A DNA stretch of 64,000 nt from Streptomyces sp. NBC_00390. Its GTDB lineage: Bacteria > Actinomycetota > Actinomycetes > Streptomycetales > Streptomycetaceae. The stretch lies in the NCBI RefSeq assembly GCF_036057275.1, contig NZ_CP107945.1, positions 7,874,001 through 7,938,000 of the forward strand, read 5' to 3'. This document shows, piece after piece, positions 46,342-49,222 of the stretch. The notes beneath the pieces were generated by a model that was not told the origin of the DNA, searched no databases, and was given only the letters and a program-made list of their open reading frames with translations. Numbering within the stretch: the stretch's first letter is position 1; every line of letters begins with the position of its first letter. The translations under genes were made by a program, and so were the position numbers.

Positions 46342-46467
46342 CACCGGACACGTCCCCGAAACCGGCGTGCTGGGCCTTCCGTTCGGTCGGTGTCCAGGGA
46401 GGCGGGCGAAAACTCGGTGGGCGACGTGTGCGGGCTGGGCTACGGTCGACCCACAGGTTCATCTGCA

Positions 46468-46537
46468 CCTCCCGGTGCGCAGGCCGCGGTTACTTCTTTG
46501 AGATGAAAGCACCGCAGCCGTCATTGATCTCGGGAGG
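46468..46537 (+). ncRNA. yrlB: Bacterial Y RNA (Ro60-binding), short type
   Basis: A 70-nt RNA closed by CCTCCCG (46468-46474) / CGGGAGG (46531-46537). The conserved Ro60-binding strands follow: GGTGCGCAGG on the 5' side and TTGATCT on the 3' side. They compare with GGUCCGAAGG and UUGACC of animal Y RNAs. An inner stem GGC-C-GCGGT / ACCGC-A-GCC carries a 20-nt loop. It lies 185 bp before rsr on the same strand and 9 bp before the second Y RNA, so both are probably one transcript. A weak TACGGT -10-like element is at 46441. The symbol follows the bacterial Yrl naming. Confidence 0.8.
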
Positions 46538-46546
46538 CACAGCATC

Positions 46547-46686
46547 GGGTGCCCGGTGCGCAGGCGGGGGATACTTCCACTGTCAATGGGGTGGTCGCGG
46601 GTTCGAATCCCGCCGGGGGTCCCGGCCCCTGTAGCTCAGCGGTCAGAGCACCTTGTCTCCTCCACCGACCTTGATCTCGGGCACCC
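46547..46686 (+). ncRNA. yrlA: Bacterial Y RNA with permuted tRNA-like domain (YrlA type)
   Basis: A 140-nt RNA closed by GGGTGCCCG / CGGGCACCC (9 bp). It has the same Ro60-binding strands as the first RNA (GGTGCGCAGG; TTGATCT). Inside is a tRNA fold in permuted order. The T arm is GCGGG-TTCGAAT-CCCGC (46597-46613). The acceptor 3' strand CGGGGGT is joined by loop CCCG to the 5' strand GCCCCTG. Then come TA, the D arm GCTC-AGCGGTCA-GAGC (46634-46649), and an anticodon-like stem CCTTG / TGGGG that opens into the Y stem. This matches the described YrlA architecture and is not a real tRNA: it has no anticodon loop and no free acceptor end. Confidence 0.88.
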
Positions 46687-46698
46687 ACTGCTGAGCTT

Positions 46699-46720
46699 CC
46701 CCTCCGAGCGAGGGGTTTCT
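46699..46720 (+). promoter_or_regulatory. Hairpin overlapping the rsr ribosome-binding site
   Basis: CCCCTC-CGAGC-GAGGGG followed by TTTCTC and the rsr ATG at 46722. The right arm GAGGGG is also the best ribosome-binding site of rsr. The element could terminate the Y RNA transcript and, when transcribed through, hide the rsr ribosome-binding site. Confidence 0.6.
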
Positions 46721-46721
46721 C

Positions 46722-48419
46722 ATGTCCCGCTTCAACACCCGCGGCGCCCGCCCGGCCGCAAGCTCGCCCGTGACCACGACCGGGGAGCGGACCGTCACCC
46801 ACGAGGGAGCGACCGCCCACCTCCGCGACGCCAAGAGCGAACTCTTCCTGCTTGCGGTCTCCAACTTCGTCTCGCAGGACACCTTCTACGAGACCGGCGG
46901 CCGGCGCGACGACCGGTTCACCGCCCTCGTACGGCAGCTCGCCGCCGACGACCCCGCCTGGACCGCCGGCCTGCTCGGCTGGCTCCGCGGCGAGGGCAAC
47001 ATGCGCACCGCGGCGCTCGTCGGCGCCGCCGAGTTCGTCCATGCCCGGCTCGAGGCGGACCGTGCCGCCGCCCCTGGGCAGACTGCCGCCGAGGGAGCCC
47101 TGCCGTACTCGAACCGCGCCGTCATCGCGTCCGTGCTCCAGCGTGCCGACGAGCCGGGCGAGATGCTCGGCTACTGGACGTCCCGCCACGGCCGCCGGCT
47201 GCCGAAGCCCGTCAAGCGCGGTGTCGCCGACGCCCTCCAGCGCCTCTACGACGAGCGGTCGCTGCTGAAGTACGACACCGACTCCAAGGGCTTCCGCTTC
47301 GGCGACGTCCTCGAGCTCGTCCACGCCGCACCGAGCCCTGACCGGGCCTGGCAGGGGCCGCTGTTCAAGCACGCCCTGGACCGCCGCCACGGACGCGACG
47401 AGAGCATCCCGGAGCAGCTTGCGATGCTGCGCCGGCGCGCGAAGCTCATGTCGATGCCCGTGCCCGACCGGCGCGCGCTGCTCCGGGACCCGTGGGACCG
47501 GACGCTGCTCGACGACGCCGGCATGACCTGGGAGGCGCTGGCGGGCTGGGTGCAGGGTCCCCTGGACGCCGCGGCGTGGGAGGCGGTCATCCCGTCGATG
47601 GGGCTGATGGCGCTCGCCCGGAACCTGCGCAACTTCGACCAGGCCGGTGTCTGTGACGCCGTCGCCGCCACCGTCGCGTCGCGGTTCGCCGATGCCGGCC
47701 AGGTGCGCCGCTCGCGCATGTTCCCGTTCCGCTGGTGGGCCGCGTACAAGGCAGCGCCGTCACTGCGCTGGGCGCACGCACTCGAGCAGGCGATCGGGCA
47801 CTCGCTCGCCAACGTGCCCGCGCTGCACGGCCGGACGCTGATCCTGGTGGACCGGTCGCCGTCGATGTTCCCGGGATACGGCTACTCGACTCCGAACCGG
47901 TCGGACATCTCACTTGCGGAGCAGGCCGCCGTGTTCGGGTCAGCCCTTGCGATGCGCGCCGAGCGCCCGACCCTGGTCGAGTTCGGCCAGACCTCGAACG
48001 TCATGAGCGTCCCGAACGGCGGGAGCGTCCTGCGCCTGGTCGAGGCGTTCGGGCAGATCGGTGGCACTGACATCCCCTCGGCGGTGAAGAAGCACTTCGA
48101 CGGGCACGACCGCGTCGTCATCGTCACCGACGAGCAGACCCGGCCCGGCTGGCTGCCGTCGAACTGCTCCGGATACGGGGGGATGCGCGAGACGCAGATC
48201 GACGACCTCATCCCGGGGACGGTGCCGGTGTACATGTGGAACATGGCCGGCTACCGGGAGGCCGCGACGGCCTCCGGCGGCGGCAACCGGCACGCGCTGG
48301 GCGGCCTGACCGACGCGGCGTTCCGCATGATCCCGCTCCTGGACGCCGGTCGCGACGCCTCCTGGCCGTGGGAGCAGCAGGGGCCGAGCACAGGGTCCGA
48401 CGCCCGCCGGCAGAGCTGA
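46722..48419 (+). CDS. rsr: Ro60 orthologue (Rsr), TROVE and vWA domains
   Basis: A 565-residue RNA-binding ring protein. The TROVE HEAT-repeat ring (residues about 20-350) has VSNFVSQDTFYETGGRRDDR and WLRGEGNMRTAALVGAAEFV. A C-terminal von Willebrand A domain has the complete MIDAS motif LILVDRSPSM (DxSxS). Bacterial Rsr binds Y RNA, helps structured-RNA decay with PNPase and aids stress survival in Deinococcus. The Y RNAs immediately upstream are the expected partners. ATG 46722 is set by GAGGGG 7 bp before. Probably cytosolic. Confidence 0.93.
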   Translation: MSRFNTRGARPAASSPVTTTGERTVTHEGATAHLRDAKSELFLLAVSNFVSQDTFYETGGRRDDRFTALVRQLAADDPAWTAGLLGWLRGEGNMRTAALVGAAEFVHARLEADRAAAPGQTAAEGALPYSNRAVIASVLQRADEPGEMLGYWTSRHGRRLPKPVKRGVADALQRLYDERSLLKYDTDSKGFRFGDVLELVHAAPSPDRAWQGPLFKHALDRRHGRDESIPEQLAMLRRRAKLMSMPVPDRRALLRDPWDRTLLDDAGMTWEALAGWVQGPLDAAAWEAVIPSMGLMALARNLRNFDQAGVCDAVAATVASRFADAGQVRRSRMFPFRWWAAYKAAPSLRWAHALEQAIGHSLANVPALHGRTLILVDRSPSMFPGYGYSTPNRSDISLAEQAAVFGSALAMRAERPTLVEFGQTSNVMSVPNGGSVLRLVEAFGQIGGTDIPSAVKKHFDGHDRVVIVTDEQTRPGWLPSNCSGYGGMRETQIDDLIPGTVPVYMWNMAGYREAATASGGGNRHALGGLTDAAFRMIPLLDAGRDASWPWEQQGPSTGSDARRQS

Positions 48420-48422
48420 AGG

Positions 48423-48455
48423 GGCGCCGACGCGGGACCGTGCCGCGTCGGCGCC
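48423..48455 (+). terminator. Strong hairpin between rsr and the nucleotidyltransferase gene
   Basis: GGCGCCGACGCGG / CCGCGTCGGCGCC, perfect 13-bp arms with 7-nt loop, 3 bp after the rsr stop. It may attenuate rather than block, since the next gene follows in 63 bp on the same strand. Confidence 0.7.
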
Positions 48456-48517
48456 GCGCCGGCGGACGAGCAGCCGGTGCTCCCGCCCGCCATACACCAC
48501 ACAAGAGAGAGGCAGCT

Positions 48518-49222
48518 GTGACCTCCAAGAACATCCTGCTGTCCGGCATAGTCGGCTCCACCGCGTACGGCCTTGCCCGCGAAGGATCGGACGTGGACCG
48601 CCTCGGCGTGTTCGCCGCCCCGACCGAGGACCTCCACGGCCTCCACCCCCCGAAGGAGTCGCACGTCACGACCGCGCCGGACAGCACCCTCCACGAGGTC
48701 GCCAAATGGTGCCGGCTTGCCCTGCGCGGCAACCCCACCGTCAACGAACTCGTCTGGCTCCCCGATGAGCTGTACGAGGTGCGCACGCCGCTCGGTGACG
48801 AGCTGATCGGTCTCCGGGCGTCGCTGCTGTCCGCCAAGCGGGTCCGCGACGCCTATCTCGGATACGCCACCCAGCAGTTCAAACGGCTCTACGACCGGGG
48901 CGACGGCGCGCTCTGCGCCGACACCCGCAAGCGCACCGCCAAGCACGCCCGCCACCTCAAGCGCCTCTGCGGGCAGGGCTACGAGCTCTACGCCACCGGA
49001 CACCTGAGCATCCGCGTCGACGACCCCGACGAGTACTACCGGTTCGGTGAACAGGTCGCGGCGGACGCGATGGCCGCGCTGCCGCTGCTGCAGCACTACG
49101 AACAGGCCTTCGACGAGACGCGCAGCGCCCTGCCCGAGCAGGCCGACGAGGCGCCCGCCGAAGCGTGGCTGCGGCGTGTGCGCGCCCACTACTACGCGGT
49201 GGAGGGGCGGGAGGGGTCGTGA
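48518..49222 (+). CDS. RlaP-type nucleotidyltransferase (RNA repair associated)
   Basis: A 234-residue DNA-polymerase-beta-superfamily enzyme. The nucleotidyltransferase motif is GSTAYGLAREGSDVDRLGVF with the two catalytic aspartates in DVD. LALRGNPTVNELVWLPDELY and RVRDAYLGYATQQFKRLYDR continue the family (RlaP, also annotated YcgL-like). RlaP genes are linked to RNA ligase and Ro60 in RNA repair gene clusters. It probably adds or removes a nucleotide at RNA ends. GTG 48518 follows AGAGAGAGGCAGCT. No RtcB, RtcA or RNA ligase is in the window. Confidence 0.85.
   Translation: MTSKNILLSGIVGSTAYGLAREGSDVDRLGVFAAPTEDLHGLHPPKESHVTTAPDSTLHEVAKWCRLALRGNPTVNELVWLPDELYEVRTPLGDELIGLRASLLSAKRVRDAYLGYATQQFKRLYDRGDGALCADTRKRTAKHARHLKRLCGQGYELYATGHLSIRVDDPDEYYRFGEQVAADAMAALPLLQHYEQAFDETRSALPEQADEAPAEAWLRRVRAHYYAVEGREGS

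What the first reader, a model, noticed from the sequence alone, without database searches (positions are those of the whole stretch)
46547..46686. Circularly permuted tRNA mimic inside the larger Y RNA
T arm, acceptor 3' strand, 4-nt cap, acceptor 5' strand, U8A9, D arm and anticodon-like stem occur in that order. All seven acceptor pairs (two G-U), the 5-bp T stem and the 4-bp D stem form. The TTCGAAT and AGCGGTCA loops are true tRNA loops. The anticodon end merges into the Ro60-binding helix. It could be processed or modified by tRNA enzymes (e.g. TruB, TrmA-type), and would be misannotated as a tRNA pseudogene.
Basis: partly seen in the sequence, partly recalled or inferred. Interest (0 to 1): 0.85.

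Follow-up and report, generated by a model that had tools for sequence, protein, structure and literature searches.

The report
Y RNA with permuted-tRNA head
Upstream of a Streptomyces Ro60 gene lies a Y RNA whose head is a tRNA cut open and rejoined in circular order; this trick is already known for bacterial Y RNAs, but here the copy also includes an anticodon arm with a real tRNA anticodon loop, and some relatives copy a different class of tRNA.

Summary
In detail: at 46597-46649 a T arm, acceptor 3' strand, 4-nt cap, acceptor 5' strand, UA and D arm follow in that order, inside an RNA (46547-46686) upstream of a Ro60/TROVE gene. It is a YrlA-type Y RNA (RF02553 rings below its cut-off), and circularly permuted tRNA mimicry by YrlA is published, so the core idea is not new. 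Relatives show that the module is real: acceptor, T and D helices covary, and the tertiary Levitt pair 15-48 is G-C or A-U in 201 of 202 Y RNA elements, switching in step. It covaries, and in 120 relatives of this layout 107 loops equal a genuine anticodon loop of the host (here CUGUCAA, Asp). Comparison thus favours a whole cloverleaf opened between positions 26 and 27. Relatives also carry class II (leucine-type) heads. Annotators do call such RNAs tRNAs. The mechanism (Ro60-tethered effector module, modified by tRNA enzymes) is taken from other species. I could not read the founding papers, so priority for the anticodon arm is unproven.

The parts
46547..46686 (+). Larger Y RNA (YrlA type): basal Ro60-binding helix GGGUGCCCGG.../...CUCGGGCACCC around the tRNA-like head
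   Evidence: Fold with closed basal helix; RF02553 hit of 39.4 bits, cut-off 69; Ro60 start codon 35 nt downstream of its end
46575..46591 (+). Anticodon-arm mimic UUCCA-CUGUCAA-UGGGG (positions 27-43; 'anticodon' GUC)
   Evidence: Covarying hairpin; loop identical to host tRNA-Asp(GUC) loop
46592..46596 (+). Variable loop UGGUC (44-48); C48 = 46596
   Evidence: 5 nt as in class I tRNA; 48 covaries with 15
46597..46613 (+). T arm GCGGG-UUCGAAU-CCCGC
46614..46631 (+). Acceptor hairpin: 3' strand CGGGGGU, cap CCCG, 5' strand GCCCCUG (7 bp)
   Evidence: acceptor pairs with double changes
46632..46649 (+). U8-A9 and D arm GCUC-AGCGGUCA-GAGC; G15 = 46639
46650..46655 (+). A26 and CCUUG, which can pair with UGGGG 46587-46591 as an alternative anticodon helix
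   Evidence: possible here, full in only a minority of relatives
46466..46539 (+). Smaller Y RNA (YrlB-like), no tRNA-like head
   Evidence: Fold z -2.3; same basal-helix motifs as the larger RNA
46699..46715 (+). Terminator-like hairpin whose 3' arm GAGGGG is the likely Shine-Dalgarno sequence of Ro60
   Evidence: 1 found, 0.1 expected; similar hairpins in relatives, read by eye
46722..48419 (+). Ro60/Rsr gene (TROVE domain), 565 aa
   Evidence: PF05731 E 5.1e-11; solved TROVE proteins 9l5y, 9kop E 1.7e-25
48236..49222 (+). RlaP-like gene (RNA repair pathway polymerase beta family); the true start is probably further in, since the ORF overlaps Ro60
   Evidence: PF10127 E 2.5e-18, matching residues 95-252

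Best explanation
A YrlA-class bacterial Y RNA made from a small Y RNA locus in front of Ro60. Its two ends pair into the Ro60-binding helix. Its head folds like a whole tRNA whose chain has been circularly permuted: anticodon arm, variable loop, T arm, acceptor hairpin closed by a 4-nt cap, then D arm, with the new ends between tRNA positions 26 and 27. Shown here by comparison: the order of parts, the covarying helices, the tRNA tertiary pair 15-48, and an anticodon loop of genuine tRNA type. Inferred: the T and D loops dock as in tRNA, and tRNA enzymes that read the elbow (TruB, Dus) modify the RNA. Inferred from Deinococcus: Ro60 holds the basal helix while the tRNA-like head tethers or gates a partner such as PNPase. 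Why the anticodon arm is kept is open; most likely it completes the tRNA core and the tRNA look that the partner or modifying enzymes recognise. My confidence is about 0.82 in the anatomy and about 0.5 in the effector role.
For: Anatomy. Rfam YrlA rings with the same element order in its structure line. 31 relatives: 96.6% of cells paired, 12 of 21 pairs with double changes, 0 of 500 shuffles as high. Positions 15 and 48, which the scanner left free: 130 G-C, 71 A-U, no cross combination; 16 switches on the RNA tree, and 6 of 6 independent pairs on well supported branches concordant, p 0.03. Anticodon hairpin: 106 of 112 relatives with 5 of 5 pairs, against 33 for the long-range form and 9 for the shifted register; pairs 30-40 and 31-39 vary as CG/GC/UA and AU/CG/GC/UA; an unconstrained consensus fold finds it in a correctly aligned set. 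107 of 120 loops are host anticodon loops. Literature for DusA, TruB, RYPER and circular permutation.
Against: In the window's own sequence the lowest-energy fold puts the first hairpin in a shifted register (-66.5 against -62.6 kcal/mol for both the anticodon hairpin and the merged form). The first consensus fold, on an alignment that misplaced about eight rows, omitted this hairpin. No expression, probing or protein data for this organism. RF02553 is not reached at its cut-off. Many elements come from close relatives, so raw counts overstate independence.
Confidence: 0.82

Rival explanations
1. One reading: only the T, acceptor and D arms are mimicked; the anticodon helix is made by CCUUG with UGGGG and its loop is opened into the Ro60 helix (the layout of Rfam YrlA and of the sister RNAs).
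For: CCUUG/UGGGG can form 5 pairs in the window; RF02553 and the class II sister RNAs have this layout.
Against: In relatives of the window's layout this helix keeps 5 of 5 pairs in 33 of 112, the hairpin in 106 of 112, and the hairpin is the one that shows compensatory changes.
Confidence: 0.13
2. A tRNA relic or a tRNA-Asp gene, as ARAGORN calls it; or a remnant of a tandem tRNA pair, which gives the same order of parts.
For: ARAGORN call; tandem tRNA-Asn pairs in Streptomyces match the same model at about 72-74 bits.
Against: Rfam's tRNA model does not ring here; no 5' D arm or acceptor partner and no second T arm; the permuted pairs covary and sit in a Ro60-linked Y RNA across the genus.
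Confidence: 0.03
3. A permuted tRNA gene that is processed to a working linear tRNA, as in some algae and archaea.
For: The order of parts is that of permuted tRNA genes (review PMC3978253, listed).
Against: Ends at 26/27 are built into a long conserved Ro60 helix; caps are mostly 3-8 nt and rarely place CCA correctly (17 of 202); bacteria have no known machinery for it (own knowledge).
Confidence: 0.01
4. An anticodon decoy or sensor: the head presents varying real anticodon loops to anticodon nucleases, VapC/MazF-like toxins or repair enzymes.
For: Loops vary between species, yet are mostly genuine tRNA loops, without A34; an RlaP repair gene follows Ro60; a competitive-inhibitor role of YrlA was proposed for Salmonella (PMC7790460).
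Against: No nuclease shown; once A34 is excluded and U36 A37 A38 kept, the remaining enrichment for host loops is modest; sister RNAs lack the loop.
Confidence: 0.12

Closest known systems
YrlA Y RNA (Rfam RF02553; Salmonella YrlA, PDB 6CU1)
   Same: Ro60-linked RNA with T arm, acceptor hairpin and D arm in circularly permuted order inside a basal helix; published as substrate of DusA and TruB (PMC8394870) and as a circularly permuted match to tRNA (PMC11472068).
   Different: Falls under the Rfam cut-off; has a complete anticodon hairpin and class I variable loop 5' of the T arm, where the Rfam consensus has a short helix between the strand before the T arm and the strand after the D arm.
Deinococcus radiodurans Y RNA (RF01053)
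   Same: Ro60 partner with T-arm-like hairpin; RYPER tether to PNPase.
   Different: Chance-level score here (19 bits); its model lacks the acceptor-D order found here.
Permuted tRNA genes (algae, archaea; review PMC3978253)
   Same: 3' half of a tRNA lies before the 5' half.
   Different: Those are processed into working tRNAs; this one is fused into a Ro60-binding helix.
tmRNA tRNA-like domain
   Same: Bacterial non-tRNA that copies the tRNA elbow and carries tRNA modifications (PMC8394870).
   Different: The Y RNA is not known to be aminoacylated, its ends are not at the acceptor, and it binds Ro60.

Membership tests
YrlA / bacterial Y RNA | Encoded next to a Ro60 orthologue | tested here: met
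   TROVE gene at 46722
YrlA / bacterial Y RNA | Basal helix formed by the two ends | tested here: met
   conserved motifs in relatives
YrlA / bacterial Y RNA | tRNA-like head with T arm, acceptor hairpin, D arm in permuted order | tested here: met
YrlA / bacterial Y RNA | RF02553 gathering score (69 bits) | tested here: not met
   39.4 bits; 53.9 for the sister RNA at the second Ro60 locus. The cut-off is a database threshold, not a biological trait
YrlA / bacterial Y RNA | Binds Ro60 in the cell | not testable with these tools
   Needs immunoprecipitation
YrlA / bacterial Y RNA | Carries tRNA modifications (pseudouridine, dihydrouridine) | not testable with these tools
   Published for Salmonella
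tRNA gene (Asp) | Match to the tRNA covariance model | tested here: not met
   RF00005 gives 69 hits in the genome, none here
Permuted tRNA gene | Processed to a mature linear tRNA with CCA end | not testable with these tools

The most novel reading that the evidence does not exclude
Actinobacterial Y RNAs carry complete circularly permuted tRNA cloverleaves, some with a genuine, changing anticodon loop and some of class II (leucine) type, and use them as decoys or sensors for enzymes that read or cut tRNA anticodons.
Probability: 0.12. Interest if true: 0.85.

Novelty: new variant of a known kind. Interest (0 to 1): 0.58.

Why it matters
Permuted tRNA mimicry by bacterial Y RNAs is established, but the papers I could read describe only the T, D and acceptor parts. 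A full cloverleaf with an anticodon loop, and a leucine-type class II version at the same kind of locus, would mean that the head copies tRNA far more closely than described and that different tRNA types were recruited. It makes the question of what reads this head testable: TruB, Dus, t6A and TrmD enzymes, PNPase, or anticodon nucleases. It also warns annotators: ARAGORN and phage records already call these RNAs tRNAs.

Tried and rejected
Rfam at its cut-off: nothing in the window. Model R1 over the phylum and genus: most hits under 76 bits are tandem tRNA pairs, so its tallies of genomes must not be read as Y RNA counts. The anticodon hairpin in the first alignment: MAFFT misplaced the rows with a 4-nt variable loop, and the consensus fold missed the hairpin; realigned (one search held one wrongly typed row and was discarded). 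U8-A14 and the GG of the D loop look invariant, but my scanner required them, so they are no evidence. Statistical claim that the loops copy host tRNAs: P 6e-6 over all 64 triplets, 2e-4 without A34, 9e-4 within U36 loops, and weaker (about 0.05, worked by hand) if both limits are applied; elements are also related by descent. Deriving each module from one specific host tRNA by sequence: best matches scatter over Gly, His, Arg, Asn and others for class I. TROVE family search over the phylum found too few non-Streptomyces loci to extend the survey. Chen 2014, Wang 2018 and the Sim reviews are not in the library.

Full report
What was checked. The unconstrained fold has a long basal helix and, inside it, four hairpins; the last three are the T arm, the acceptor hairpin and the D arm. 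Overall folding energy is not remarkable for its composition (z -1.1), so energy alone proves little. A strict scanner finds one full-score element in the window on both strands; 400 Markov windows gave one in all, 0.0025 per window.

What it is. The next gene is a TROVE/Ro60 protein (PF05731; related to solved TROVE proteins 9l5y and 9kop), followed by an RlaP repair-pathway gene (PF10127). A smaller Y RNA lies just upstream. Rfam YrlA (RF02553) matches the head at 39.4 bits, under its cut-off of 69, and its own structure line shows the same order of T arm, acceptor hairpin and D arm (full-length alignment of the sister RNA). So this is a member of a known kind. Published work already states that YrlA resembles the D, T and acceptor arms of tRNA and is a substrate of DusA and TruB (PMC8394870), and that the crystal structure 6CU1 superposes on tRNA with a circular permutation (PMC11472068).

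Is the head really tRNA-like? Ro60 relatives were fetched and their upstream DNA scanned. In 31 diverse modules 96.6% of cells pair, 12 of 21 pairs show double changes and no shuffle comes near. In 203 elements the tertiary Levitt pair, D-loop position 15 with variable-loop position 48, is G-C in 130 and A-U in 71; the two exceptions are one spurious non-Y RNA hit (L154) and one G-G (L249). Neighbouring positions do not do this. On a tree built without these two columns each position switches 16 times; of the independent pairs on well supported branches 6 of 6 agree (p 0.03). This pair joins the D loop to the variable loop only in a tRNA-like core, so it is strong comparative evidence for that core. 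U8-A14 was required by the scanner and is not counted as evidence.

The missed arm. Directly 5' of the T arm is UUCCA-CUGUCAA-UGGGG (46575-46591) and a 5-nt variable loop UGGUC. This has the geometry of a tRNA anticodon arm. It explains why ARAGORN calls a tRNA-Asp(GUC) at 46549-46623, while Rfam's tRNA model does not. In 112 relatives with the 5-nt variable loop, 106 form all five pairs; the long-range alternative CCUUG/UGGGG does so in 33 and a shifted register in 9. Pairs 30-40 and 31-39 change in a compensatory way (17-row test), and a free consensus fold finds the hairpin once the rows are aligned in register. A first alignment that misplaced about eight rows had hidden it. For the window sequence alone the alternatives lie within 4 kcal/mol and the shifted register is favoured, so the anticodon arm rests on comparison, not on energy.

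The loops. Of 120 such elements 107 carry a heptamer identical to an anticodon loop of this genome's own tRNAs (Met, Ile, Asn, Lys, Ser, Asp, Arg, Thr, Glu, Tyr, Gly and Pro types), 15 of 27 distinct loops. U33 was part of the definition of this class, though nothing with the right geometry was lost by it. A34 never occurs, and U36-A37-A38 dominates. The match to host loops exceeds column-wise chance (0.56 of distinct loops against 0.29, P 0.004), but part of it is the shared U33/A37/A38 frame, and elements are related by descent.

Layouts and classes. I call the window's layout topology 1: permutation between 26 and 27. In topology 2 the anticodon helix joins the strand before the T arm to the strand after the D arm, and its loop is opened into the Ro60 helix, as in Rfam YrlA. 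Thirty-three topology 2 elements have a leucine-type D arm (TGGCGGAA...GACGC), an anticodon helix and mostly a hairpin variable region of 11-19 nt, whose stems vary (GGGG/CCCC-like, CC/GG, CAA/TTG, CCGTA/TACGG), that is, a permuted class II tRNA. Other D arms resemble tRNA-Glu (L062, L192) and initiator tRNA (L175, L182, L183). On the Ro60 tree the Ro60-proximal RNA changes between generic and leucine type at least 7 times, while on the RNA tree the five D-arm classes need only 4 changes, which suggests exchange of heads between loci; several Ro60 branches are weak.

Spread and annotation. The own genome has a second Ro60 locus with its own Y RNA and an orphan Y RNA pair elsewhere. Phages of Streptomyces and Gordonia carry Ro60 with such RNAs; in GiJojo, VanLee and Frankenweenie the record annotates a tRNA-Arg(cct), tRNA-Arg(tct) and tRNA-Pro(tgg) over the Y RNA head. 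VanLee's hairpin loop CTTCTAA is a true Arg(UCU) loop.

Mechanism. Ro60 binding of the basal helix, docking of the T and D loops, modification by elbow-reading tRNA enzymes, and tethering of PNPase or another partner are inferred from Salmonella and Deinococcus work; none was tested in this organism. A decoy role for the anticodon loop is possible and unproven. Salmonella YrlA was reported not to be cut by the tRNA nuclease, and the authors proposed competitive inhibition (PMC7790460).

Limits. The founding papers could not be read, so I cannot exclude that the anticodon arm or class II heads were noted there. I found no expression or binding data for this locus in what I could search.

Noticed in passing
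window 46699-46721: A terminator-like hairpin CCCCTC-cgagc-GAGGGG plus TTTCT ends at the Ro60 start codon; the likely Shine-Dalgarno sequence lies in its 3' arm. Similar hairpins stand before Ro60 in many relatives, which suggests that read-through or unfolding couples Y RNA and Ro60 expression.
   Followed up: partly
L073 770-1060 (own genome C1:7011269-7011559): An orphan pair of Y RNAs with no Ro60 gene seen nearby, in front of an ORF that reads like PriA by eye; the larger has a serine-type D arm, a hairpin before the T arm and another after the D arm. Full-length DNA matches in some other Streptomyces genomes.
   Followed up: partly
L072 690-960 (own genome C1:6498604-6498702): Second Ro60 paralogue (61% identical) with its own small and large Y RNA; the large one is topology 2, 53.9 bits to RF02553.
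   Followed up: partly
L008, L012, L014, L015, L017, L019, L021, L025, L029, L050, L054, L055 and others: Leucine-type, class II permuted heads with a hairpin variable arm in the Ro60-proximal Y RNA; many loci hold two tRNA-like Y RNAs plus a small one.
   Followed up: yes
L265 1269-1343, L268 1204-1275, L274 1245-1335: Phage records annotate Ro60-linked Y RNA heads as tRNA-Arg or tRNA-Pro.
   Followed up: yes
own genome C1:5804927-5805077: Tandem tRNA-Asn genes with a 4-nt spacer match the permuted model at about 72 bits; such pairs occur in most Streptomyces genomes searched and show how a permuted head could arise, and how scans can be misled.
   Followed up: partly
L043, L045, L048 upstream of Ro60: Y RNAs with an acceptor-like hairpin followed by a T-arm-like hairpin whose loop reads as the reverse complement of a T loop; no D arm found.
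   Followed up: no
L062 and L192: Y RNA heads with a Glu-type D arm; in L062 the anticodon-like loop is also that of tRNA-Glu(CUC).
   Followed up: no
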